NCBI GenBank assembly: GCA_018398815.1
Contig: CM031615.1
Coordinates: forward strand, 56,234,715-56,298,714
DNA length: 64,000 nucleotides
Reading direction: 5' to 3'
Origin: Conus ventricosus
Taxonomy: Eukaryota; Mollusca; Gastropoda; Neogastropoda; Conidae
The position numbers and the translations under genes were made by a program. This document shows positions 9,218 through 60,122 of this stretch, piece after piece. The notes beneath the pieces were generated by a model. The model made no database searches. It was not told the DNA's origin and worked only from the letters and a program-made list of their open reading frames with translations. Numbering within the stretch: position 1 is the first letter of the stretch; each line of letters opens with the position of its first letter.

Positions 9218-10305
9218 GCAACGGAGTTCTCCAGGTTTCTGTTCCGTACAATAGGACTGCTTTGATGTTTGGGGTTGAAGAGACTGACTTTGGTGTTGAC
9301 TGACAGTTCTTGGAGCTCCAGATGTTCCGTAGCTGTACAAACACTGCCCTGGCCTTTCTGATACTTGCTCTGACGTTGGCGTCGTGCCCCCTGCTTGTCG
9401 ATGACACTGTCCCGGTAGGTAAGGCTTCTACTTCCTCTAGCACCTTGCTGTCCAGCTGATCGAGTTGGTGCTGCAGTATTGGCCTTGAGAATCTTGCTCT
9501 TGCCTTTATGGATGTTGAGACCCACTTGTGCTGATGTGGCTGCTACGTTGCTTGTCTTATCTTGCATCTGATGTTGAGTGTCTGAAAGTAGTGCCAGGTC
9601 GTCGGCGAAGTCCAAATCGTCAAGTGTCCAGGGTGTCCACTGGATCCCATGTCTTCTCTGAGCTGTTGAGGTCTTCATGATCCAGTTGATTGCCAGTAGA
9701 AATAGAAATGGTGAAAGTAGACAACCTTGTCTGACACCAATCCTCACTTAAAATGCCTTCGTGAGCTGCCCTCCATGGATGACTCTACAGGTCAGAGCCT
9801 CGTACGAGTTTCTGATGATGGTGGTGATCTTGGCCAGCATACCGTAATGTCGGAGAAGCTTTCACAGGGTGTCTCGGTCTACGCTGTCAAAGGCTTTCTC
9901 ATAGTTGATAAAGTTCACATACAGGGATGAGTTCATGCGAAGCATTGCGATCTGGTCTGTGCAGGATCGATCTTTGCGAAAGCCAGCCTGCTGGTCGCGG
10001 AGTTGAGCATCAACTGGATCCTTTAACCTGTTCAAAATGATTCTGTTGAAAACCTTTCCTGGCACTGACAGCAGTGTGATTCCTCTGCACTTCGCGCAGT
10101 TGCTAAGGTTGGCTTTCTTGGTAATCTTGATAAGGTATCCCTCCTTACAGTCTGCTGGCACTTGCTCCTCTTCCCAGATCTTCTTGCCGAGAGGCCAAAG
10201 CATCTCCACTGTGGTCTCTATGTCTGTCTTCAGTGCCTCTGCGGGGATGTTGTCAGGTCCTGCCGCCTTTCTGTTCTTTGACTGCTATGCTGCCACTCTA
10301 ATTTA
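9218..10305 (-). mobile_element. RTE-type LINE, reverse transcriptase part (5'-truncated)
   Basis: On the minus strand from about 10300 downward: AGPDNIPAEALK (about 10255), LRDQQAGFRKDRSCTDQI (about 9980), motif A FINYEKAFDSVDRD (about 9870), VRQGCLLSPFLFLLAINWIMK (about 9735-9670), motif C DLDFADDLALLSD with the catalytic aspartate pair intact (about 9590), QVGLNIHKGKSKIL, and LLYGTETWR ending at the LINE insertion. It continues at 3618-3228. The endonuclease half is absent, so this was a 5'-truncated insertion before it was interrupted. A frameshift lies at about 9748 and others around 9400-9480. Confidence 0.85.
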
Positions 10306-45042: not shown

Positions 45043-45047
45043 GAGAT
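45043..45047. repeat. 5-bp target duplication, left (GAGAT)
   Basis: GAGAT directly left of the LTR terminus TGTCACG. The partner is at 60118-60122. Confidence 0.85.
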
Positions 45048-47154
45048 TGTCACGACCGACCCCTGGAGGTCTGCCCTGACAGGATCGGTCTAGATGGGAG
45101 TGAAGGGAGTGACTGACCTCACACGCCTCGCAAGAGCCCACACAAGAAAGATTACGATACAACACCCCATTTATTCACATCAACACACGCAATCACAAAT
45201 AAATATTTCAACACACGCACCATGCACAATCACAATCAAGCATTCCAACACACACAACTACACAATCACAATCAAGCATTTCAACACATATGACATATAC
45301 ACAATTATAAATAAATAATTCCAGCCCCCATCCCTTTCCCTGTCATGTGGTGCCCTCACACCCCTGCCTCTCCAAAGTCCACCGGGAGCACCCTGTCACA
45401 CCGGGTGCCCCAAACCGGGTCGGTTCCTGAAGAGTCGTTCAAGGCCGACACCCTTGACCACACAAACAGACGATGGAGAGCGCGCCCCGGGGGACGGGGC
45501 GTTGCTGCTGGAGGTCCTAGACGGGGATCAGGACTGTCCAGCCAAGTCCACGGGCTTTTCCACCAGTACGTGGCCTCAACCAGTGCGTGGTCCCAACCAG
45601 TGCGTGGCCCCAACCAGTGCGCGTTACCAACCAGTGCGCGGTCCAACCAGTGCGCGCTACCAACCAGTGCGTGGTCCCAACCAGTGCGTGTTACCAACCA
45701 GTGCGTGGTCCAACCAGTGCGTGCTCCGGGCGAAGCCCCCGGGAGGAGGGAAAAGGCGACAGCTAGGAGAGAAGAAAGACGGGTACTGGAACCCGCAGTC
45801 AGTACAGTCTGACCCATGCTGTTAAAACCCTAACAGCACTCGCATGATGGGCGAGGGGAGGTCTACTAAATACATCAACACCAGCTCAACACAGACCTGA
45901 GCATAACGCAGCAAACCAGCCAAATCAGAAATGTTTGTTAAAGTCTTACATACGAAGCAGGTAAGAGACTGCATTAAATTAACAGGCTATAAAACAAATA
46001 TGAATTATCTTCATCCTTCTCTCACTCACGTTTAACATTTTCCTTTCCTAGGAACTGAACTAATAGAGCAACCATGGCTTTACATCTGCCCCCACATTTG
46101 CAAATAATAATTCAATGGCACAATTATCCCCACATTTTTATAGCAACATTTCAAAATAACACAAATCTCCAACCACGCATCCAACCGACTAATCATGCGT
46201 ACGCACGCTCGCGAACATAAAACTCGTTCTACTTGCACACACAAACAGACGGTGGCCGAAGAATAAGAGTCCGGCGAATGTGACAGGGGCGGACGAGCGA
46301 GACTAAGCAAGTACCAACCCTGAATCACCAGGTTCTCTCCCACCCCCACCGACTACCGCATCACCAGATGCATAAACAGGAGAAAGAATTTTGGATATAA
46401 TTTAGAATGGCAGGTTAAAGATTGAATTAACCGAGAAAAGGTCTCAAACAATATTCCTTTTACAATTTTGAAAACAAAAGAAAATTGCGCAAAAGAGAAG
46501 AATAAGCCGGCTAACAACCAAAAAAAAAACCAAAACAAACAAACCACGAAATGATGCTTACCAGCTACCCGTGGGTGACCCCGAAGAGGCGGGTCAAACG
46601 ACTCTCTCTGCCCTCTGTCCGGTCGAGAGGACAGCAGCGCAGATGCGGAAAAAGGTGAAGTGATGTCTCCCTCCTACAGGCCGACTGTAGGAAATGAAGG
46701 TACCGACTGTACCTTCGACGATAAGGTGAAGAACCAAGACGGAGCAGGCGCTCCCAGAGACATCTTCCGCTCGAGTGAAGAGAAAAACCTGCCTAAGCGA
46801 TGGCGGCCAACATGCCACGCTACGTCACAGTGAGAATACCTCAAGCCTAAGAGGAATCTTGCACGTGCGGCAGGTGAAAAGACAGGTGAGAGGCCGATAG
46901 AGACAGCCAGTACAAGGAAAAGATACCAGCCACCCGTGAACCTGCAGGATGAATTGCACGGGCAGTGGAATTAGAGAGAGAGAGAGAGAGAGAAAGTAAA
47001 CCTAACCTGAGCTGAACTACACCAAAGGTGCAACCACACCACAAGCCACATTAAAGGACGGATATACGACAACAACGACCACAATAAATAAATGAATAAT
47101 TCTACTACCCTAGATGGGCCAATCGTCATAGGCCTCGTAAAAAAACCCGTGACA
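45048..47154 (-). repeat. 3' LTR of the gypsy-type element
   Basis: 2107 bases with the short terminal inverted repeat TGTCACG...CGTGACA. It matches 58018-60117 throughout with few substitutions and scattered one-base indels. It contains a 17-bp tandem repeat (45577-45727) and, on the minus strand, a TATA-like GCTATAAAAA near 46135. A GA run lies at about 46974-46994. Confidence 0.9.
45577..45727. repeat. 17-bp tandem repeat inside the 3' LTR
   Basis: About nine units of caaccagtgcgtggtcc, alternating between GGTCC and TTAC/CTAC endings. The same array sits at 58545-58696 in the other LTR. Confidence 0.9.
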
Positions 47155-47167
47155 AACCCCCTTCTAA
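47155..47167 (-). promoter_or_regulatory. Polypurine tract of the gypsy-type element
   Basis: Minus-strand TAGAAGGGGGTT directly abuts the 3' LTR, the expected place for the plus-strand DNA primer. Confidence 0.75.
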
Positions 47168-47499
47168 AGCATCTGTTTCTCTGAGATACAGTGCTCCTTT
47201 TAACCTTGACGCATGTGCAAATTCACAACAACGGGACCGAACCCAACCTCTGTGATCGACAGTGTACGATAAATCCAATACAAACGTTCCACGATAGAAT
47301 CACACAAGGAAATACATGATACTACATTTATCAAACAACTGAGCAAACCTTCCAACAATGAAAATAACAATCCCAACGATTGGTGGTGATTCACTACCAT
47401 TAACATCGCTGAAGTGAAAACTGTCCTGAAACAGAGACCAAAAGGGGACATAACTCTGGCTGACGGGAAGTGTCCCTCTGACTGATTTCTCAATGTGCT

Positions 47500-48480
47500 G
47501 ACTACGGAGCTCGGCTGAGATAGTCAGCATCCGTATTGCTGGAACCCTTGATATGGCGGAAAACGACTCTGCAGTTCCACTGCCTAAACTCATGAGTCGA
47601 CGACCGACTGGCCGGACCCGGTCCAGGCACTGGAGAGGATGATGATCGCTCTCCAGTACAAACTTCCGGCCGTGCTTCTTCCTGGGCACGCCAGCGCGCG
47701 TCCAAATCTGCCGGAGAGCCACAGCAACAGTAGGGACATCGATAGTCCTAAGCGGGACAGCCTCTGGGTAACGAGTCGCAGGGTCTACCGCTACGAAATG
47801 TAGCGGTGACCGCGATCGGATGGTGGATTGATGGGTCCACCAGGTCAACCCCAACCTTGCTGAATGGCTCCCCAACCAGTGGCACTGACCCTAGGGGAAC
47901 ACGCTTCAAGCGACCCTTAGGCGTTGTCCGTTGGCAGACATCGCAACTGCGGCAGTACTGTCTAACCTGAGAATTCATTCCCGGCCAGAAGAAGTCACGT
48001 CTTACTCGCTCGAGAGTCCGCTTTGAGCCCATATGGCCTGCCATGGGTGAATCATGGGCCTGCCGGAGAACAGATTCTCTCAAGCTTTGGGGACGACAAG
48101 CTGCTTGGCCACACGATCTGCCTGAGTGAAAACCCTAAAGAGGATCCCCTTGTGGAGCTTGAAGCTCACCTTGGCGTGTCGGGCCGACTGAGCGGGACGA
48201 CCCACCAGTTGTCGCAGGCGTTGGACGTCCAAGTCACTGGCCTGAAGACGGACTATGGTAGCTGGATCTACTCTCGCAAGAACCTCGTCAGAGATCGGCT
48301 GAAGAACAGACGCAATTCCTGCTCCTGCTTTTTGGCTTTGGCGCGCGTGGTAACTCCCACACACGCCTGTACGGGCAGATCCGTAGACACAGACTGACTG
48401 CGTCCGTCTGTGAAGGTGATAGTATTCCCTATCAGAAGGGAATACAGAGGTGAGGGGTGAAGGTCAGGTCGCCTTGCAGG
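47500..48480 (-). pseudogene. Gypsy pol remnant: protease tail, integrase, RNase H end
   Basis: Minus strand, from 48480 downward: a protease-to-integrase linker with VGVTTRAKAKKQ (about 48370); the integrase zinc domain with paired histidines in RQAHDSPMAGHMG (about 48060) and paired cysteines in CRSCDVCQ (about 47940); core sequence VGVDLVDP (first catalytic Asp) and, after a one-base shift, FVAVDPATRYPEAVPLR (about 47800); then at 47681 an in-frame jump to HGRKFVLESDHHPLQCLD and, shifted, RHIKGSSNTDADYLSRA (about 47560-47505), the end of RNase H. Integrase would insert element DNA, but its second Asp and Glu are deleted along with reverse transcriptase. Confidence 0.85.
48466..48472. repeat. 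Left 7-bp target duplication of the CR1/L2 LINE
   Basis: AGGTCGC, repeated at 52279-52285. The gypsy reading frame is continuous across the two when one copy and the LINE are skipped. Confidence 0.85.
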
Positions 48481-51400
48481 CACGTCCGATCTTAGCTCCG
48501 TCAGTTTTCATCGTTTTCATGTGGTTTGACTGTGTGTACAGTTTTGATATTTGTTAGAGTGCTGTATGATGGATTGGTGTTGGATTATGTGTGCTCCACT
48601 TCACGTCAGGACGATGTTCTTCTTCATGATTCTATCGGTGAGATTTTTCCTTTTGAATCAGCGTGGCAGTCCGCCATTTTCGGCTGGCATCCCCGGCAAC
48701 TTGCACATGCTACGACCCACTTTTCACCGTCCACGCTGCCGCTAGCCGACACTACGTGTAGCACGGAGGCGCTTCGTACACTGAACCGTGGTCGTGCCTG
48801 CCACTCTTATACACGAAATCAGCTGTTGGCATGTAAACAAACAGCGGCACACCGTGACCTCGACCCGATCTGATCAGTCGTTTGAAAGAACTGTCTATTG
48901 GTTACCGTCTGCCACGCCACCGATCGTCCCGAGGTGGCACCAGAAAACGCCGGCAGATTCCTGTAGTTATCAGTCAACAACATTCTACAACCAACATTTC
49001 TTCTGTCACTGATTTCGACTCCTCCCTCAGCTCCCCTGACGTGTCGACCGCGCTGACCTGTGCTTCGGGTGCCAACCTCGAGAACTTGATAGCGGTTCCT
49101 GTACAGGGCTCTGATCTTCCTAATCAGCTCTGTGTCTGTCACCTGAATGCCCAGTCTGTTCGTGGTAATGCCCTTAAAACACGTCAGAAACGCACTGCGA
49201 TCGCTGACTTCATGACCGATTACGACGTGGACATTATGATAGTGTCAGAAACGTGGCTTCGTGAGTCAGGTGATGAGAGTAAATGTGTGATTTGACACCC
49301 CCGGGTTATAAACTCTACAATTTCCCCGTGAACTTGGTGCCACAGCCAAGAGTGGTGGTGGGATTATGCTGATCATCAAAGAGTGTCTCGTGTCTTACTG
49401 CCACGTCAATTCCACCTTCCCCTTCTCCCACACCACTTTTGAAGTGGCTGAGCTACTTCTGACTTTGCAAAATCAACGAATCCGTCTGCTGTGTGTGTAT
49501 CGGACCCCGCCCAGTAAAAGGAACAAACTGCTTGATTCAAGATTCTACGAAGAGTTCCCTGATTTCCTTGACTTTGCCGCCACGCGTGACGGCGATCTTC
49601 TGATCATCGGTGACTTTAATGTTCACTACGACGACTCGAGTGATCCCAGAGCTAGGAGGTTTCAGAAACTCTTAGAGACGTGTGGCCTTTCTCAGGCCAT
49701 CGATGAACCCACTTATCCAGCAAGTGGTCACATTCTTGATCTTGTGATTTTTCGTGACACTGACGGTCTTTTGCACTCTGCTAAGTGTTGTTATGATTTG
49801 ATGTCTGATCACTATAGTCTAGTGTGCCATCTCAGTGTTCCAAAGCAAAAGTCGGCACCCCAATTCAAATGTGTTCGTGCCATTCATAAGATCAACCCTG
49901 CTGATTTTTCTCCATGACATCGCTAACATTATCACGCCTGACGTAACACTTACTGATTTGAACATTGGTCTTAGAAAAGTTTTGGATAAGCATGCGCCTG
50001 TATGTCAGCGGACGGTACACTGGCGTCGCCCGGCTCCGTGGTACAACTCAATTGCACCTGAGCTGCGAATATTGAAACGCGAGCGACGTCGAGCCGAGCG
50101 GCGCTGGGTTATCATCTAGACTGACAATACACAAGCAAATTTACGATGCTGCCAAACAGAAAGTCGTACAGTTTGTCCATCAAGCCAAAACCGCATTTTA
50201 TTTTCTAAAGTTGCAGCAGCATCCTCGTGTAAAGAACTGTTTAGCACTAGCATGTTGGGTAAGGCTGCAAGTGTTGTAATGCCGTCCACTCATGAGCCGT
50301 CACAGCTTCCTGGTCTGTTTTCTCAGTTTTTCGCCCATAAAATTCAGACAATTCGAAACGCTTTCTCCCCATCCTCAGATATTTCAGATCAGTCTGTTGT
50401 TTTTAACGGTACCACACTCTGTGAGTTCCTGCCAGTGTCGGAGCAGACTGTTCGTAAAATCATCACACAGTCTGCGAAAACATCCTGTGACCTTGACCCC
50501 ATTCCCACCCCACTCCTCTTTGAACACCTTGACTCTCTCCTTCCTACCATCACCAAAATTCTTAACGAGTCCCTGTCTTCTGGCACAGTTCCCACTGACT
50601 TTAAGACCGCCCTTGTTAAACCTCTATCAAGAAAAGCAGTCTTGATCCCAACGTTCTTAAAAATTACAGACCCATCTCAAATCTTCCTTTCCTATCCAAA
50701 ATTCTTGAGAAAGTCATTCTTCAACAGCTCTCTGACCATCTGGCCTCAAACAACCTCCTCACACCACATCAGTCAGCCTATCGCCCTGGGCACAGCACGG
50801 AGACCACCATCCTTCGCATTCTCAATGATATTCTAAATTCCTTAGACGAAAACAAAATTTCTGTCCTTCTTTTGCTAGATCTTTCGGCAGCCTTTGACAC
50901 CATAGACCATGAAATCCTTCTCTCTCGTTTGAAATACACATGTGGCATCAGGGAAACAGCTTTAAATTGGTTTCGTTCTTATCTTCTAGATAGGAAACAG
51001 TTCATTCAAGTAGGTGACCACCGTTCTGATGAATCAAACCTCCAATTTGGAGTGCCTCAGGGATCCGTGCTGGGACCTGTCCTCTTTATTTTGTACACCA
51101 CTCCATTGTCTAATGTCATCCACGGCCATTCCGTTTGACACGAAATGTTTGTGGACGATACTCAGCTGCTCCATTCCTCTGTCATCGATGACTACTCACC
51201 CCTTGTTTCTACTCTTCAATCTTGTACTTCTGATATTGAGACCTGGATGTCAGCAAATAAGCTTAAATTAAACTGTGAGAAGACTGAAGCCATCCGTTTT
51301 TTTAAAGCGGTCACATCATGGCCCTGATCGCTCCCTTCTTCTTTGACATTAGGTTCCAGCACTATTGAATTTTCAAACACTGTTCGTGACCTTGGTGTTC

Positions 51401-52278
51401 TCCTTGATAGTGACCTCTCGATGAAACAGCATGTCACAAAAATTTGTCAGTTAGCCAACATGGAACTTAAACGAATTTGCTGCTATTCGACCCTATCTCA
51501 CTGAAGACGCCACAAAAACTCTCGTTTCATCATACATCCTTTCAAGGCTAGATTACTGCAACTGTGTTCTCCTTGGCTGTCCCTCAACTGTCATCCAAAC
51601 CCCTCCAATGTGTACAGAACTCTGCAGCCCGTCTCATTTGCAAATCTCTAGGACCCAACCCTGCAGCCCTCTCCTGAAAAAGTTGCACTGGCTCCCCGTT
51701 GAAGAAAGAATTAAATACAAATGTTGTTGTCTCTGCTTCAAGATTTTCACTGGCGATGCCCATGCCTATCTATCCGATCTCCTTCAAGTATATGTCCCAT
51801 CACGTACGCTCCGCTCCTCCACCGACACTAGGACCTTCCGCTTTCCCAGTTACCGCCCCATCGTAAACAGCATGGCGAACGAGCTTTCTCATACGCAGCT
51901 CCCAAACTCTGGAATAAACTCCCCTATGACTTAAGACATTCTCAAACCTTTTCTTCCTTCAAAACCTCCCTGAAAACCTACCTTTTCAAACAATACTAAG
52001 AAGACAGTCATTACCAGATAGTTGATTGACTTTTGTTATTTTGTGGATTGCTTAGTAGTTTGTGCTTGTTGCGGCTGTTGTGGTTTGTTGTGTCTGTGCG
52101 TGAGAGTGTGTGTGCGCGTGGGAGAGAATGAGAGAGAGCCTTTGTTTTTCATTTCTGAGCCGGTTTTTTTTCAATGCATTTTCTTTGCATTTAGCAATTG
52201 CATTTTTTCTGCCTTTGTAAAGCGCCTTGTGCCGTGGAAGGCGCTATATAAATCCCCATTATTATTATTATTATTATT
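48473..52278 (+). mobile_element. CR1/L2-type LINE nested in the gypsy element
   Basis: 3.8 kb in the opposite orientation to its host element, with a 7-bp target duplication. It has one open region coding for endonuclease and reverse transcriptase, a 3' hairpin (GCGCC 52222-52226 with GGCGC 52240-52244), a TATATAAAT word, and an (ATT)n tail (about 52257-52278) typical of L2-like LINEs. The length suggests it is close to full length. Confidence 0.85.
48880..51975 (+). pseudogene. CR1/L2 LINE polyprotein (endonuclease-reverse transcriptase), frameshifted
   Basis: Endonuclease: VCHLNAQSVRGNALK (about 49135), IMIVSETWLRESG (about 49235), RIRLLCVYRTPPS (about 49480), LLIIGDFNVHYDD (about 49600-49635) and LMSDHYSLVCHL (about 49800). 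Reverse transcriptase: motif A LLLLDLSAAFDTIDHEILL (about 50866-50920), motif B FGVPQGSVLGPVLF (about 51047-51088) and motif C MFVDDTQLLH with both aspartates (51145-51174). The C-terminal part includes LKKLHWLPVEERIKYK (about 51675) and an LPYDLRHSQTFSSFK-like end (about 51925-51965). Breaks near 49295, 49915, 50640, 50835, 51138 and 51325 prevent a product. All are small indels, so some may be assembly errors. Confidence 0.8.
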
Positions 52279-52285
52279 AGGTCGC
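52279..52285. repeat. Right 7-bp target duplication of the CR1/L2 LINE
   Basis: AGGTCGC directly after the (ATT)n tail, copy of 48466-48472. Confidence 0.85.
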
Positions 52286-53329
52286 TCCACCGCGATGGCC
52301 CATACTTCGCCACAGAAGTAGGGGGTGGAGATAGAAATAAGTACAGAAGGACGGGTGGAGGTAAAACCAGCCTCCAACCCGCACACATCATAACTGGCGC
52401 CCCGCCGAGCCTCAGGAGAAACCAAATCCTTATCCACAAAGAGCGTTGATGCTCCAGAACCCCTGATGGAGTCGACCAAGGAAGAACCCACAACGGAAAG
52501 AAACACTGGACACTCTGTGCCACCAGAAGCTGGGATGGACCCTACGTTAGCCGAGGCACGAGGACGCTGGGAAGGACCAGCCCCATGACTACCGGCGGCT
52601 CTAGGACAATCTTTCCTAATGTGGCCAGGACGACCACAAAGAAAACACAGTCGGGGTGCGGGAGGTCCCCGATGAACTGCCTGCCTGTTCAACCCGCTAG
52701 CAGTCGTCGGCGCCTTATTGCCACTAAATCCTGTGGGGTCTTCCTGCCCGTATCTGGGCGATGCTATAAGCCCTACGGGCTTCAGCAAACACCTCAGCGG
52801 TATGGATCGCAGCCGCGAAATCCTGTGGTGCTGTCTCGCCTATACGGATCCTCAACTCTGGGGACACGGTGTTGGTTCAGCTGCTCGATGAGAATCAGAT
52901 CCTCAAGCTCCAGCTTACCCAACTGACGCCAGTACCCTAGCGTTTTGCGCAGCCTATCTCCAAACTGCACGAAGGTCTCATCGTTATTCTTTTTCATGGA
53001 CCTAAACTTCCTCCTGTACGTTTCTGGAGTAAGGTGGAAACGCTTACGCAGAGCCAACTGCATGTCTGCATAAGACGCGCCTTCATTTAGAGTAAGGACA
53101 CACTCCTTGCAGTACCAGATAATCCAGAAAAAAGGTGCATGGCCTTTTGATCCTCAGACAATTGGTATGAACTAGCAACCTTGTCAAAATGCTCTAAGAA
53201 CATATCAATGTCCTCACTGGTCTGAACTCTGGAAGCTTCAATTTTGGGCCTCTAACCCCATCACTTGCCTGTCGATCAACCCCCTGATTTACAGATGCGG
53301 GAGTCCGCGACAGAAGTTGTTCCACCTCT

Positions 53330-53700
53330 TCCCTACGCAGAGCCTCCATCCTATCCAGCTCTTCCCTACGGAGGGCTTCCTGCCTGACAGCCTCTTCCTA
53401 CGGAGGGCTTCCTGCCTGGCAGCATCTTCCCTATGCAGAGCCTCCTGTCTGGCAGCCTCTTCCTGCGCAGCTAGCCTCTTCCATACGCAGAATTTCCTGT
53501 CTGTCAGTCTCTCTCTGCGCAGAGCCTCCATCCTATCTAGCTCTTCCCTACGGAGGGCTTCCTGCCTGACAGCCTCTTCCCTACGCAGGGCTTCCTGCCT
53601 GACAGCCTCTTCCTTACGCAGTGCAGCCTCTTCCTTACGCAGGGCTTCCTGCCTGACAGCCTCTTCCCTACGCAGTGCAGCCTCTTCCTGTCGCTGTCGC
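53330..53700 (-). repeat. 33-bp tandem repeat within gag
   Basis: Units such as ctacg(g/c)agggcttcctgcc followed by tgacagcctcttcc encode 11-residue Arg/Glu/Ala-rich coiled-coil repeats, with single-base slips between some units. Confidence 0.85.
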
Positions 53701-54220
53701 TCCAAAAACATAAGGACAGAGGCGATATCCTGAGCAGGATTCACCACTCCCGACACGGGAGTTTGACCCGTCTGACCCGTTCCCTTGGGTCTCGACTTTC
53801 CCATGAGGAAAGTCTCCCGGGGCATACTCCTTACGAGGGGAAGCATGGAGAAGAGAGGGTTTCGGTTTCTGTGACTCAACAGAAGCCCACAGTTGCTTCG
53901 CTATGCTCTGACGCTTCCGAGCGGAAGTGCCAGTAGGGGTCTCAGCAGGAAGATCCCTAGCGAAGAAGTAGTGAAAGTACTCACTGGACTATCGGCTACA
54001 GCACTGGAATAAGTATAAGTCACTGTAGTCGCAGTACTGGTACTAATAGTAGGGACTACCTCCTGAAGACCCTTCTTCTTTGACGCACGTGTCGCCATAC
54101 CACCAGCACCGGACGTTGCCATGACAACAATATCCTACGGTTCTCAAATACAGGGGAAAGACAATTCCACTAGAAAGAAACAAATATTTTAGGGATGTGT
54201 GTGTGTGTGTGCGGATGTGT

Positions 54221-54390
54221 TCCGGCTGCTCCCACTCTGGCAACACCGCGCTCCACAGCACGAGCAACAGTGCGGTGGGGCTCACCGAAAAAAAAAAAAA
54301 AAAAAAAAAAAAATGTCCGGCTGCCCCCACTCTGGCAACACCGCGCCCCACAGCACGAGCAACAGTGCGGTGGGGCTCACCGGGAAAAAA
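54221..54390. repeat. 67-bp direct duplication, each copy followed by an A tract
   Basis: 54221-54287 and 54315-54381 are nearly identical (tccggctgc, ccactctggcaacaccgcgc, cacagcacgagcaacagtg, cggtggggctcacc). The first is followed by about 25 A and the second by GGG and 9 A. They lie in the 5' leader of the gypsy element, upstream of gag. Confidence 0.85.
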
Positions 54391-54702
54391 AAACAAAATG
54401 GCAGAGGGAATCCGGGGAGAGAGGGAAAAAGTGACACTTAACGTCGATACAACCCCTGTACTCAATAACCCCCCGGTAAAAAAAAAACTGGCTAACTACA
54501 AAACGGAATGGCAGACTGAACGGCAACAAAAGGGAAAGACTTACGGCCGTACCGCGTGAGGTACCCGGCGGAAGGAGGTCTGGACGCGGTCGATTCCCCT
54601 GGTCTCACCTCGCCTCCCCGGTCACACCCGGATGTTCCCTGGGGGCCCACCAAGACTCCCTACACGCTAGAGTCACCCAGCCAACCACCCACAAACAAAC
54701 AC

Positions 54703-54715
54703 GACAAACTGACTA
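54703..54715. repeat. Left 13-bp target duplication of the nested RTE
   Basis: GACAAACTGACTA, exact copy at 57912-57924. Confidence 0.9.
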
Positions 54716-57700
54716 CTTACTTACTTATGCCCGTCGCTCCCGGGGAGCATAGGCCATCAACGACCCTTCGCCATCGCACCTGTTCTGGGCTGTTGGTCAT
54801 TCCAGTCCAGTTTGTCCCTTGTTGTTTCAACTCCGCCTCAGTGTCTGTCTCCAGCTGTTGCGAGGCCGGCCTCTTTTTCTCTTTACCTGCGGTTCCAGGT
54901 CAGGGCTTGGCGTGTGGTGCTGGATGCTGGCTTCCTGAGGGTGTGTCCGATCCCCCCCACTTCCTTCGCAGTATCTGTTTGGGCCCCACTGGTTCCTGCC
55001 CGCACGCTCCCACAGATCTTCTTTTCGGCCCTTGTCCTGCATCGGATTTTGTAGATGGCCTCAGACAGGTGTTGAAGAATGTCTGAATCTTTTGTTGCAT
55101 TGTCTGTGTTGTTCGCCACGTCTCGCATCCGTAGAGCAGAACTGATTTACATTGGAGTTGAAGATGCGGAGTTTGGTTCTTATGCTGATTCCTCCAGATG
55201 CCCAGATGTTCTTGAGCATGACGAAAGCTGCTTTTTTGCCTTGCCGATTCTGGCTTTTGACTCTGGGTCCGTGCCTCCCTGTTGTCAACCACGCTTCCCA
55301 GGTAGACAAAAGGACTCCACCTCCTGATGGGCTCTTCCCATCGACTGTGACTGTGTGTTGGCAGTGGTGTTGATTTTCATCAGCTGGGTTTCCTTCTTCC
55401 TGTTAATCTTGAGCCTGTCCCGGCTGATGTGGTCTCCAAGCGAGTGGTCTTGTCTGCATCTGGCTGTGGCTGTGTGAAGGAGCCCCGGTCGCCCAGCGAA
55501 GTCAAGGTCATCGAGCTGCGTCCAGAGTGTCCACTGTATACCGTTGTTTTTCTGCCTGTTGTAGTGGTCTTCATGATCCAGTCAATGACCGGGAGGAAGA
55601 GGAACGGCGACGGGCAGCATCCGGGCCGAACTCCAGTCTTCACCTCGAAACTTTCGGACAGGTGGCCGGCGTGGGCAATCCTGCAGTTCATGTCCTGTAG
55701 GTGCACCGGATGAGGGGAATGATCTTCTTGGGGACCCGTAATGCCTCAGCAGCTTCCACAGCATCTCTCTGTCCACACTGTCGAAAGCCTTCTCATAATC
55801 TATGAAGTTGATGTAAAGGGGGGAGTTCCACTCCAGCGACGCTCCACGATGATGGCGGGCTGGCGATTGGTCGGCACATGATTTGTTCTGCCGGAAGCCT
55901 GCCTGCTGGTCTCGGAGCTTGGGGTCGACAGCTCTTTCATTCTCTCCAGTAGAACCCTGTTGAGAACCTTGCCTGGCGTTGACAGGGCAATGATCCCTCG
56001 GTAGTTGCTGCAGTCCCTGAGGTCTCCTTTCTTCGGCAGCTTGATGACAATTCTTCTTTCCACTGAGCGGTACCTCCTCCTTCTCCCAGATCTTGCTGAA
56101 GAGGCTGTATAGCATGTTGACAGCTGTCTCTATGTCTGCTTTGATGGCTTCTGTGGTATCTCGCCCGGCCCTGCACCCTTTCCATTTTTCAGAGTCATGA
56201 GGGCCCTTCTTGATCTCTGCCTTTGGGGGTTTTGTCACAGCTGATGGGCAGGTCTGTCTCTGCGGTGGGATTCTGGTGGTGCGTCGGGGGCGGGGGGGTT
56301 CAGCAGCTCCCTGAAGTGTTCCTGCCCATCGTTTCAGCTGTTCCTCGGTTTTTTTGTCAGGGGGTTTTTCCGTTTTTGTCTTCACTGGCTTGTCTGTCTG
56401 CTGGAACTTACCCTCAGCTTCTTGGTCACCGGGTACAGGTCCTTCAGTTCCCTGCCCGGGCTGCTCCCTCTGCTTGGTGGGCCCGGTCGTCAAGTATCCC
56501 TCTTGTCCTTCTTGATGCTCTTCTTTACTTCTCCGTTCGCTGCTGTGTGCTCTTCCTGGCCTTTGCCCTAGCTGCTCTTGTTCGGCCGTGTTCAGTGTAG
56601 CTTTCTTCTCTCTCCTTGTTTCCAAATTGTGGATGGTGTCGGCAGAGATCCATTCTTTGTGCTGGGCCTTCTTCTTGCCAAGGATCTCTTTACATGTGTC
56701 ATGCCAGAGCTTCTTGCAGTGTTCCCACTGGTCTCGATGTCCGTTCACTGTCTTCTATAGCTCTTGTAGCGGCTGGAACCTGTTGGAAGGCGATCTGGAA
56801 TGCTGCTTGTGTGTCCCTGTTCCGGAGCAGTCCCACATTGTACCTTGTACGTGTGTGTTGGTGTTGGTGAATCTCTTGAGGCGAAGTCTCACTGTTGTTA
56901 AAGAAGGGGTGGGCTGAAAGACAAAGTCAGCACCTTCATCACTCGTACATCCCGCCATGATCTCCTGAATTTGCGGCTAATGCAGGGTGTGGTCAATCTG
57001 TTCTCCGTGACATGGTTCGGGGATCTCCATGTGGCCTTGTGGATGCGCTTGTGTGGGGAAAATGCTTCCTCCTATCACCAGCTGGTTCCCGGGCGCAAGG
57101 TCTGCAAAACGCTCACCATTCTCGTTCATCTGTCCCAGTCCATGTGTCCCCATGATGTCCTCGTAGCCCGTGTTGTCCCTTTCCCATCTTGGCGTTAAAA
57201 TCTCCCATCAGTATGGTTATGTCCCTTTTCTCCTCTTTTGTCTATCACTGTCTGTAGTTGCTGGTAAAGTCATCTTTTTTTCTCTTCTTCGCATCATTGA
57301 TGGGAGCATAGCACTGGATGATGTTCAGCCTGATGTCATTCTTCTTCGTGGTAAACTTTGGGTGTGATGATGCGGGAAGTTGACCCGGTTCCCATCGATG
57401 AGTGCCCCTTGTGCCTCCGTGGGCCCGCATCAGGGCCCCACCTCAGTGTGGGGTCCATCCTCTGTGTGTCCCGAGTACAGCAGCTGTTCTCCAGATGAAA
57501 GTCTCAGCTGTCCTGATTGTAGCCACCTTGTCTCACTCAGTCCTAGCACTCCCATCTTTTAGTTTTTCATCTCTCTCGCAACTTGGATGGTTTTTCCTGT
57601 TTCAAAAATCGTCCTGATGTTCCATGTGGCTACTTTCGTTGTTGTCCCGGGTGTTAGAAGGGGAGTCGGCTTTCAGCTTCCTTTCGGCTTTCACTGCACT

Positions 57701-57911
57701 GCGTCATAAGTCTCCGGGATGGAGACCCTTCATTGCCCAGGTGAATGCTTTGGTTCATTGTCGTTGATTTCTTCTGTAACTCGTCTTTTTTAAGCAAAGG
57801 TTTACCCCACGCAAACCCCCTTTTTCCTCGGGCGAGTGTCCTGCCTTATCGCCCTTACGAACATTTCATGGCAGGGCAGTGGGTCTTTCTATGCCCAAAC
57901 CCCCAGGGCAT
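54716..57911 (-). mobile_element. Near full-length RTE LINE nested in the gypsy leader
   Basis: 3196 bases with a perfect 13-bp target duplication, in the same orientation as the host element. The 5' end is at 57911. The 3' end is at 54716 with a TAAG-repeat tail (GCATAAGTAAGTAAG on the minus strand), a usual RTE tail type. It carries endonuclease and reverse transcriptase but no RNase H. It is related to, but distinct in tail from, the split RTE at 3.2-10.3 kb. Confidence 0.9.
54745..57640 (-). pseudogene. RTE polyprotein (endonuclease-reverse transcriptase), frameshifted
   Basis: Minus strand: endonuclease start VATWNIRTIFETGKTIQVA (about 57632-57580), FTTKKNDIRLNIIQCYAPIN (about 57350-57300), catalytic MGDFNAKMG (about 57206-57184) and KATWRSPNHVTENR (about 57030-56995); linker; reverse transcriptase with GIIALSTPGKVLNRVLLERM (about 55990-55935), LRDQQAGFRQNKSC (about 55910-55880) and motif A FIDYEKAFDSVDREMLWKLL (about 55807-55750). 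Motif C, expected FADD, reads FAG with a shift at about 55490, so the active site is damaged. The C-terminal part has VLLYGCETWRTT (about 55140-55105) and the HTLRKPAS region (about 54945). At least six frame breaks. Confidence 0.85.
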
Positions 57912-57924
57912 GACAAACTGACTA
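57912..57924. repeat. Right 13-bp target duplication of the nested RTE
   Basis: GACAAACTGACTA, see 54703-54715. Confidence 0.9.
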
Positions 57925-57995
57925 AACATATACAAAACAGACAGAAACTGAACAGGTACTCCGCGAAAACGAGAGAGACAGCCAGAGCCCTTCAC

Positions 57996-58013
57996 ATCCC
58001 GGATGAGCCCCCA
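57996..58013 (-). promoter_or_regulatory. Primer-binding site, tRNA-Pro type
   Basis: Minus-strand TGGGGGCTCATCCGGGAT lies four bases inside the 5' LTR. It differs by one base from the tRNA-Pro primer site used by several retroelements (CTCG in place of CTCA), so reverse transcription was probably primed by tRNA-Pro. Confidence 0.8.
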
Positions 58014-58017
58014 CAAA

Positions 58018-60117
58018 TGTCATGGGCCGACCCTGGAGGGCTGCCCTGACAAGGATCGGTCTAGATGGGAGTGAGGGAGTGACTGACCTCACACGCTCGC
58101 AAGAGCCCACACAAGAAAGATTACGATACAACACCCCATTTTTTCACATCAACACACGCAATCACAAATAAATATTTCAACCACCCCACCATGCACAATC
58201 ACAATCAAGCATTCCAACACACACAACATACAAATCACAATCAAGCATTTCAACACATATGACATATACACAATTATAAAAAATAATTCCAGCCCCCATC
58301 CCTTTCCCTGTCATGTGGTGCCCTCACACCCCTGCCTCTCCAAAGTCCACCGGGAGCACCTGTCGCACCGGGTGCCCCAAACCGGGTCGGTTCCTGAAGA
58401 GTCGTTCAAGGCCGACACCCTTGACCCACACAAACAGACGATGGAGAGCGCGCCCCGGGGGACGGGGCGTTGCTGCTGGAGGTCCTAGACGGGGATCAGG
58501 ACTGTCCAGCCAAGTCCACGGGCTTTTCCACCAGTACGTGGCCTCAACCAGTGCGTGGTCCCACCAGTGCGTGGCCCCAACCAGTGCGCGTTACCAGCCA
58601 GTGCACGGTCCCAACCAGTGCGCGCTACCAACCAGTGCGTGGTCCCAACCAGTGCGTGTTACCAACCAGTGCGTGGTCCCAACCAGTGCTTTGCTCCGGG
58701 CGAAGCCCCCGGGAGGAGGGAAAAGGCGACAGCTAGGAGAGAAGAAAGAACGGGTACTGGAACCCCGCAGTCAGTACAGTCTGACCCATGCTGTTAAAAC
58801 CCTAACAGTCACTCGCATGATGGGCGAGGGGAGGTCTACTAAATACATCAACACCAGCTCAACACAGACCTGAGCATAACGCAGCAAACCAACCAAATCA
58901 GAAATGTTTGTTAAAGTCTTCACATACGAAGCAGGTAAGAGACTGCATTAAATTAACAGGCTATAAAACAAATATGAATTATCTTCATCCTTCTCTCACT
59001 CACGTTTAACATTTTCCTTTCCTAGGAACTGAACTAATAGAGCAACCATGGCTTTACATCTGCCACCACATTTGCAAATAATAATTCAATGGCACAATTA
59101 TCCCCACATTTTATAGCAACATTTCAAAATAACACAAATCTCCAACCACGCATCCAACCGACTAATCATGCGTACGCACGCTCGCGAACATAAAACTCGT
59201 TCTCCTTGCACACACAAACAGACGGTGGCCGAAGAATAAGAGTCCGGCGAATGTGACAGGGGCGGACGAGCGAGACTAAGCAAGTACCAACCCTGAATCA
59301 CAGGTTCTCTCCCATCCCCACCGACTACCGCATCACCAGATGCATAAACAGGAGAAAGAATTTTGGATATAATTTAGAATGGCAGGTTAAAGATTGAATT
59401 AACCGAGAAAAGGTCTCAAACAATATTCCTTTTACAATTTTGAAAACAAAAGAAAATTGCGCAAAAGAGAAGAATAAGCCGGTAACAACCAAAAAAAAAC
59501 CCAAAACAAACAAACCACGAAACTGATGCTTACCAGCTACCGTGGGTGACCCGAAGAGGCGGGTCAAACGACTCTCTCTGCCTCTGTCGGTCGAGAGGAC
59601 AGCAGCGCAGATGCGGAAAAAGGTGAAGTGATGTCTCCTTCCTACAGGCCGACTGTAGGAAATGAAGGTACCGACTGTACCTTCGACGATAAGGTGAAGA
59701 ACCAGACCGGAGCAGGCGCTCCCAGAGACATCTTCCGCTCGAGTGAAGAGAAAACCTGCCTAAGCGATGGCGGCCAACATGCCACGCTACGTCACAGTGA
59801 GAATACCTCAAGCCTAAGAGGAATCTTGCACGTGCGGCAGGTGAAAAGACAGGTGAGAGGCGATAGAGACAGCCAGTACAAGGAAAAGATACCAGCCACC
59901 CGTGAACCTGCAGGATGAATTGCACGGGCAGTGGAATTAGAGAGAGAGAGAGAGAGAAAGTAAACCTAACCTGAGCTGAACTACACCAAAGGTGCAACCA
60001 CACCACAAGCCACATTAAAGGACGGATATACGACAACAACGACCACAATAAATAAATGAATAATTCTACTACCCTAGATGGGCCAATCGTCATAGGCCTC
60101 GTAACAAACCCGTGACA
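58018..60117 (-). repeat. 5' LTR of the gypsy-type element
   Basis: 2100 bases, partner of 45048-47154. The terminus facing the interior reads TGTCATG in place of TGTCACG, a single change in the inverted repeat. The 17-bp array is at 58545-58696. A TATA-like GCTATAAAA lies on the minus strand near 59110. A GA run is at about 59939-59957. Confidence 0.9.
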
Positions 60118-60122
60118 GAGAT
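60118..60122. repeat. 5-bp target duplication, right (GAGAT)
   Basis: GAGAT immediately after CGTGACA, partner of 45043-45047. Confidence 0.85.

What the first reader, a model, noticed from the sequence alone, without database searches (positions are those of the whole stretch)
45043..60122. Gypsy-type element with integrase upstream of RNase H (copia-like order)
Seen: on the minus strand the order is gag, CCHC knuckle, protease, linker with TTRAKAKK, integrase zinc domain, integrase core, then RNase H C-terminus, polypurine tract and LTR. No reverse transcriptase lies between protease and integrase, where the frame is continuous apart from the nested LINE. Known: most Ty3/gypsy elements have integrase last. 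The Gmr1-like group is the known exception. Inference: this is a molluscan Gmr1-like element with unusually long (2.1-kb) LTRs and a coiled-coil gag.
Basis: partly seen in the sequence, partly recalled or inferred. Interest (0 to 1): 0.75.

Follow-up and report, generated by a model that had tools for sequence, protein, structure and literature searches.

The report
RT-less Gmr1-like retrotransposon family
A long repeat in a genome that looks like a sea snail's belongs to a retrotransposon lineage whose integrase comes before its reverse transcriptase, and this copy is one of many that have lost the reverse transcriptase and probably spread by borrowing it from relatives.

Summary
It has two 2.1-kb LTRs (97.6% identical), a 5-bp target duplication (ATCTC), and on the minus strand gag, CCHC, protease, integrase zinc domain, partial integrase core, RNase H tail, stop, polypurine tract and LTR. 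The Gmr1-like reading holds: complete relatives, named ones from gastropods, run gag(SCAN)-PR-IN-RT-RH; 94 of 94 with both domains have integrase before RT.

The same join is in 28 of 29 other fetched loci and in 40 of 40 scored hits of a join-spanning probe. Seven such copies have clean target duplications and LTR divergences of 0.4-3.5%. An RT-bearing sister family sits in the same genome. The window copy is a decayed, twice-interrupted member of an RT-less, presumably trans-mobilised family. Four relatives elsewhere, one possibly a gene model, show other RT losses. Mobilisation in trans is inferred, not shown.

The parts
60118..60122 (-). target site duplication ATCTC, 5' side
   Evidence: read directly
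58018..60117 (-). 5' LTR (TGTCAC...GACA)
   Evidence: blastn against the 3' LTR, 97.6%; K2P 0.0174 over 2089 sites
57996..58013 (-). primer binding site, 4 nt from the LTR; looks like tRNA-Pro (label recalled, no tRNA compared)
   Evidence: read directly; a like sequence follows the 5' LTR in 9 of the 10 other copies printed (not L042)
54716..57908 (-). nested, degenerate non-LTR retrotransposon in the 5' leader, with a 16-bp TSD (57909-57924 and 54700-54715, 15 of 16 identical)
   Evidence: RVT_1 E 8.6e-6, 26 bits, below its cut-off of 29.6, on 55582-56754; TSD read
53289..53900 (-). gag coiled-coil repeats (units of about 33 bp)
   Evidence: repeat family D4; 40 of 122 relatives match it
52794..53153 (-). 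gag capsid region, SCAN-like (weak in the window itself)
   Evidence: SCAN 17.1 bits, below the cut-off 27; 65% identical to P0066 over residues 21-92 of the piece
52603..52650 (-). CCHC zinc knuckle
   Evidence: zf-CCHC E 9.9e-6
52279..52527 (-). aspartic protease, first part (no Pfam hit of its own)
   Evidence: aligned to P0066 and P0079 up to the point where the LINE cuts in
48473..52278 (+). nested non-LTR retrotransposon on the opposite strand, inserted in protease; TSD GCGACCT (48466-48472 and 52279-52285)
   Evidence: endonuclease and RVT_1 (E 3.5e-26) domains; TSD read
48298..48465 (-). protease tail (LLIGN) and TTRAKAKK linker, contiguous with integrase
   Evidence: P0066 residues 579-625, 53% identical
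47919..48092 (-). integrase zinc domain (H2C2)
   Evidence: PF17921 E 8.7e-26; 72% identical to P0066
47681..47918 (-). integrase core, N-terminal part only; stops before the second catalytic Asp (motif recalled)
   Evidence: aligned to P0110 residues 804-842
47671..47690 (-). deletion join between integrase core and RNase H, shared by the family
47503..47675 (-). RNase H C-terminal tail and stop codon (47503-47505)
   Evidence: two pieces aligned to P0110 residues 1516-1543 and 1556-1573 of 1576; 89% nt to L051
47155..47165 (-). polypurine tract AGAAGGGGGTT
   Evidence: read directly
45048..47154 (-). 3' LTR
45043..45047 (-). target site duplication ATCTC, 3' side
   Evidence: read directly

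Best explanation
The element is a decayed copy of a non-autonomous LTR retrotransposon family. The family descends from a Gmr1-like Ty3/gypsy element with the order gag-PR-IN-RT-RH by an internal deletion, from mid-integrase core to mid-RNase H, that removed the whole reverse transcriptase. The shortened genome keeps what must act in cis (LTRs, PBS, leader and gag region, polypurine tract). Copies are transcribed from the LTR, packaged, reverse-transcribed and integrated by proteins of RT-bearing relatives in the same genome. Shown: anatomy, the shared join, separate LTR- and TSD-flanked insertions of different age, and the RT-bearing sister family. Inferred: packaging, reverse transcription and integration in trans. 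This copy has since received two LINE insertions and carries several frame breaks, and cannot move by its own proteins.
For: Order in complete relatives: 94 of 94 with both domains have IN before RT; domain positions for 6 of 6 proteins. Window pieces match P0066 and P0110 along their length, and the join falls at P0110 residue 842 to about 1515. 28 of 29 other loci (L002-L030) carry the same join by nucleotide alignment; the 29th (L007) also lacks the RT core. Join probe: 40 of 40 scored hits at 95-100%. Seven RT-less copies have clean 5-bp TSDs and K2P 0.0044-0.0347. RT-bearing sister: integrase hit 91% identical to the window piece, 1.6 kb upstream of RT on the same strand; its RNase H tail is 89% identical to the window including the stop; 56 of 150 scored RT hits at 80% or more and 40 of 40 scored RT-probe hits at 93-100%. 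A TAG in the RNase H tail is shared by 25 of 30 loci by a strict pattern and 28 of 30 by a looser one, while L004 and L030 keep TGG like the RT-bearing copy, so the family multiplied after the deletion. Insertions with little LTR divergence (L039, L043) have broken reading frames.
Against: No transcript, particle or new insertion was observed. The 30 loci were picked for similarity to this window's integrase, so they over-represent the RT-less type. First-look counts (950 for the join probe, 430 for an RT probe) differ only about twofold and are crude, so no large excess of the RT-less form is shown. The RNase H tail in the window has no Pfam hit.
Confidence: 0.86

Rival explanations
1. The window holds an ordinary autonomous-type Gmr1-like element that privately lost RT after insertion; other copies are complete.
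For: Order and relatives fit Gmr1-like; the window copy is decayed.
Against: The same nucleotide join is in 28 of 29 other fetched loci and 40 of 40 scored probe hits, in copies with their own TSDs.
Confidence: 0.02
2. A normal gypsy order (PR-RT-RH-IN) was scrambled locally, so that an RNase H piece came to lie after integrase.
For: Only an RNase H fragment, not a full domain, follows integrase in the window.
Against: RNase H is the C-terminal domain in complete relatives, and the polyproteins of P0110, P0066 and P0117 end within a few residues of the same motif; in the RT-bearing copy of this genome RT and RNase H follow integrase and end in the same stop codon.
Confidence: 0.02
3. The RT-less form arose by reverse transcription of a spliced RNA (RT removed as an intron) rather than by slippage or template switching during reverse transcription.
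For: The lost stretch is internal and clean. Spliced LINE-1 copies are a known precedent (PMC5860796, title and abstract start in the listing only).
Against: In the one RT-bearing copy read, the two bases after the L007-type breakpoint are GA, not GT, and no AG stands just before the RNase H resume points; breakpoints differ among the RT-less relatives. The integrase-side breakpoint of the window type was not readable in an RT-bearing copy.
Confidence: 0.1
4. The RT-less elements keep gag, protease and (in some lineages) integrase as working proteins and need only RT/RNase H in trans.
For: Three ORFs from unnamed public sequences (P0019, P0062, P0114) run open through gag, protease and the integrase core and C-terminus into the RNase H tail; L039 keeps a 400-aa frame in gag.
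Against: In the window's own family integrase is cut before its second catalytic residue, and L043, with LTR divergence 0.0086, is broken across gag-PR-IN. No dN/dS test was made.
Confidence: 0.25

Closest known systems
Gmr1-like Ty3/gypsy elements (Gmr1 clade; Goodwin and Poulter 2002, seen only as cited in PMC6238403)
   Same: Integrase upstream of RT/RNase H in complete relatives; SCAN-type capsid in relatives, as reported for over 50% of frog Gmr elements (PMC4131045, passages) and for the origin of SCAN (PMC4592553, passages).
   Different: The window family lacks RT altogether. No Gmr1 reference sequence was available, so clade membership by RT tree was not tested.
IAP I-delta-1 of mouse (PMC7411935, passages)
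   Same: Partly deleted LTR element with a fused gag-pol region that moves with proteins of full-length copies.
   Different: An endogenous retrovirus family with another deletion; there mobility is documented, here it is inferred.
Bovine ERVK[2-1-LTR] D-type elements (PMC10924933, passages)
   Same: Defective copies coexist with competent ones and multiply, as its authors propose, by trans-complementation; C and D types recombine.
   Different: There the passages speak of a central segment replaced by an old piece of retroelement; here it is a plain deletion. De novo insertions were observed there.
TR-GAG and LARD/TRIM elements of plants (recalled; TR-GAG listing only); Helenus of animals and fungi (PMC10886601, passages)
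   Same: Non-autonomous LTR families dependent on other elements.
   Different: TRIM-like elements carry no coding (recalled); the window family keeps gag-PR-partial IN sequence.

Membership tests
Gmr1-like gypsy elements | Integrase upstream of RT-RNase H | tested here: met
   94 of 94 relatives with both domains; RT-bearing copy in own genome in register. In the window itself RT is deleted, so only IN before the RNase H tail can be seen.
Gmr1-like gypsy elements | SCAN-type capsid in gag | tested here: inconclusive
   Window piece below the Pfam cut-off (17.1 against 27 bits); 5 of 6 relatives scanned pass. A PDB search with the window piece gave only chance hits.
Gmr1-like gypsy elements | RT groups with Gmr1 in a phylogeny | not testable with these tools
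   The window has no RT and no Gmr1 reference sequence was found; the integrase tree holds only the listed relatives and own-genome copies.
LTR retrotransposon | LTR pair, TSD, PBS, PPT | tested here: met
   (tRNA match of the PBS not tested)
Non-autonomous LTR family | Same internal deletion in many separate insertions | tested here: met
   28 of 29 loci; 7 copies with clean TSD pairs; 40 of 40 scored probe hits
Non-autonomous LTR family | RT-bearing partner present in the genome | tested here: met
   RT-bearing sister copies; whether any is intact or active was not asked, and the one read has a frame shift
Non-autonomous LTR family | Mobilisation in trans | not testable with these tools
   no expression or insertion data

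The most novel reading that the evidence does not exclude
Because integrase precedes RT in this order, one internal deletion can remove RT and most of RNase H while leaving gag-protease-integrase as a single frame. Gmr1-like lineages may therefore repeatedly throw off RT-less elements that make their own capsid, protease and integrase and take only RT from intact relatives: a recurrent two-part system within one clade, with hybrids such as L007 recording joint packaging.
Probability: 0.2. Interest if true: 0.68.

Novelty: new variant of a known kind. Interest (0 to 1): 0.52.

Why it matters
A survey of LTR elements in nine mollusc genomes and database sequences of 47 further species (PMC6238403, passages) names 21 gypsy clades, with Gmr1 mentioned only once, in its background. 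Here many of the best-listed IN-before-RT polyproteins are named gastropod proteins, so such elements look like a substantial molluscan lineage. The RT-less family suggests that this order lends itself to losing RT cleanly, and gives a datable set of copies for studying how defective elements coexist with complete ones outside mammals and plants.

Tried and rejected
Scans of IMG/VR with the integrase piece and a small alignment found no relative. A solved-structure search with the gag capsid piece gave only chance matches. Pfam on the RNase H pieces gave nothing. A splice origin of the deletion was considered and not supported. 'RT-less copies vastly outnumber RT-bearing ones' was considered and dropped after the control probe (430 first-look candidates against 950). 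The label test printed by the tree tool for the RT-less proteins compares two labels only and is not evidence; what I use is their placement on four branches, each beside RT-bearing rows, on a tree of 96 columns.

Dropped rows: 9 of 20 fetched copies had masked stretches and were skipped, and 4 more (L036, L037, L038, L042) gave no clean LTR/TSD pair. In one search one locus (L027) had no readable segment. In one search, 28 of the 29 non-window loci passed the length filter. Of the 28 proteins without a detected RT only the last 50 residues were looked at, apart from four.
Full report
What is there. The element spans 45043-60122 on the minus strand. The two LTRs (58018-60117 and 45048-47154) are 97.6% identical by blastn (K2P 0.0174 over 2089 aligned sites), begin TGTCAC, and are flanked by the 5-bp duplication ATCTC. 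Four bases inside the 5' LTR lies a primer-binding-like site; I recall it as tRNA-Pro type but compared no tRNA. Inside the 3' LTR lies the purine tract AGAAGGGGGTT. Between them, in element order, are: a nested, degenerate non-LTR element on the same strand (about 54716-57908, 16-bp TSD, RT domain E 8.6e-6 but below its cut-off); gag with coiled-coil repeats, a SCAN-like capsid and a CCHC knuckle; the first part of protease; a second non-LTR element on the opposite strand (48473-52278, TSD GCGACCT, RT domain E 3.5e-26); the protease tail with LLIGN and TTRAKAKK; the integrase zinc domain (E 8.7e-26); a partial integrase core; the RNase H tail ending in a stop; the purine tract; and the LTR.

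Where RT went. The protease tail, the linker and integrase lie in one uninterrupted stretch (48465-47919), so no RT sits between protease and integrase whatever one makes of the LINE. The protease pieces on either side of the LINE both reach residue 579 of P0066. At the other end, the integrase core stops at residue 842 of P0110 and the sequence resumes in RNase H at about residue 1515 of the same protein. The lost stretch, about 670 codons in that relative, holds the rest of the integrase core, the integrase C-terminus, the whole RT and the first part of RNase H.

Complete relatives. A search with a related integrase fragment gave 1459 proteins at E 1e-10 or better, of which the best 120 were listed; the named species among them are the gastropods Littorina saxatilis, Batillaria attramentaria and Babylonia areolata. 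Pfam positions in 6 of 6 scanned proteins run capsid or CCHC, (protease), H2C2, rve, RVT_1, RNase H. With profiles made from single domains, 94 of 122 proteins (the 120 plus P0001 and P0002) have both H2C2 and RT, and in 94 of 94 integrase comes first. This is the Gmr1-like order. The window family forms one clade of 29 rows with support 100/97 and joins P0066, P0110, P0117, P0079, P0086 and P0094 with 100/93 on a 96-column integrase tree. An RT tree against Gmr1 itself could not be made.

A family, not an accident. The own genome (3.52 Gb) gave 150 scored matches to the window's integrase piece out of 22,608 first-look candidates. Thirty loci were cut. One (L001) is the window. Of the other 29, 28 align to the window right across the integrase-RNase H join; the other, L007, lacks the RT core too but keeps the rest of integrase and the pre-RT linker. 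A 121-bp probe over the join gave 40 scored hits, 40 of 40 at 95-100% identity, from 950 first-look candidates. Of 20 longer stretches, 9 had masked bases and were skipped, 4 gave no clean pair, and 7 have two LTRs with identical 5-bp duplications, an internal part of 3.65-4.13 kb and LTR divergence from 0.0044 to 0.0347; all 7 carry the join. These are separate insertions of one RT-less structure at different times.

History inside the family. Twenty-five of 30 loci by a strict pattern, and 28 of 30 by a looser one, show TAG at one site of the RNase H tail where the RT-bearing copy has TGG; L004 and L030 keep TGG. So the deletion came first, the stop later, and both were passed on. L039 and L043, with LTR divergences of 0.0044 and 0.0086, already have frame breaks or stops through protease-integrase, L043 through gag as well. 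That suggests the parent RNA was already broken and did not supply these proteins. LTR-to-LTR gene conversion could make such copies look too young.

The partner. A search with an RT piece placed one RT hit 1.6 kb downstream of a window-type integrase hit, on the same strand (C13); a second such pair is on C6793. Checked by script, these are 2 of 150 integrase hits against 71 RT hits; a third pair is on opposite strands. The 1.5 kb of the C13 copy that I could read (L051) holds the pre-RT linker, RT and RNase H, ending in the same stop; it shows a frame shift between RT and RNase H. Its RNase H tail is 89% identical to the window and 95.5% to L036, the longer stretch of L007. With its RT, 56 of 150 scored hits are at 80% or more (counted by hand), and a 121-bp RT probe gave 40 of 40 scored hits at 93-100% from 430 first-look candidates. 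So both forms are multi-copy; the counts are crude and do not show a large excess of the RT-less one.

L007. Its RNase H tail is 92.7-100% identical to the RT-less loci (100% to L021) against 96.0% to the RT-bearing copy, and it carries the majority RT-less state at all 7 columns where that copy stands apart. It also holds a pre-RT linker, 88.5% identical to the RT-bearing copy, which the other 28 loci lack. The motif CCCAAGAAGA occurs in it twice, once in integrase and once before RNase H. It is either a hybrid made by template switching between the two RNAs, which would mean joint packaging, or an intermediate from which the window type arose by deletion between those two motifs. I lean to the hybrid, because the RT-bearing copy read has no such motif before RNase H, but one copy does not decide.

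Elsewhere. Among the 122 proteins, 28 have integrase but no detected RT; 24 of these were not followed beyond their last 50 residues. Four join the region after integrase to RNase H: P0019 (against P0008, 1108 to 1561), P0114 (against P0043, about 1033 to 1436), P0062 (against P0106, about 1020 to 1454) and P0072 (against P0073, 1143 to 1383, RNase H complete). Breakpoints differ and each sits beside RT-bearing rows on a different branch, which suggests separate events. P0072 is a Littorina record and, if a gene model, may owe its gap to a predicted intron; the other three come from sources whose nature (DNA or RNA) I could not check.

Mechanism. The simplest reading is the one known from mouse IAP I-delta-1 (PMC7411935, passages) and proposed for the bovine ERVK D-type elements (PMC10924933, passages): a deletion derivative keeps the cis signals and is copied by proteins of complete relatives. 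Shown here are the anatomy, the shared join, the separate insertions and the partner family; the trans step is inferred.

What is known. Gmr1-like elements were described in deuterostomes (PMC4131045, passages), later in crustaceans (PMC3587641, passages) and an annelid (PMC8220671, passages). The mollusc survey PMC6238403 lists 21 gypsy clades and mentions Gmr1 once, in its background (passages). Searches for Gmr1 with mollusc or gastropod terms and for non-autonomous LTR elements with mollusc terms listed no paper that, by title and start of abstract, describes a molluscan Gmr1-like or RT-less Gmr1-like family.

Noticed in passing
window 45526-45745 and 58527-58713: Both LTRs carry a tandem array of 16-17-bp units.
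   Followed up: no
window 54221-54303 and 54316-54398: A 94% identical 83-bp direct repeat with A/T runs in the gag leader.
   Followed up: no
L036 (same copy as L007): RT-less copy that keeps integrase C-terminus and pre-RT linker; possible hybrid between RT-less and RT-bearing RNAs.
   Followed up: partly
P0019, P0062, P0114, P0072 (public proteins): RT-less relatives with joins from after integrase to RNase H, at different breakpoints.
   Followed up: partly
L031, L032, L033, L040, L044-L047, L049: Stretches of these copies read N (masked or gap); left alone.
   Followed up: no
window 9554-10271: A 64% identical match to window 55447-56182, inside the minus-strand nested LINE, so a relative of that LINE lies elsewhere in the window.
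   Followed up: no
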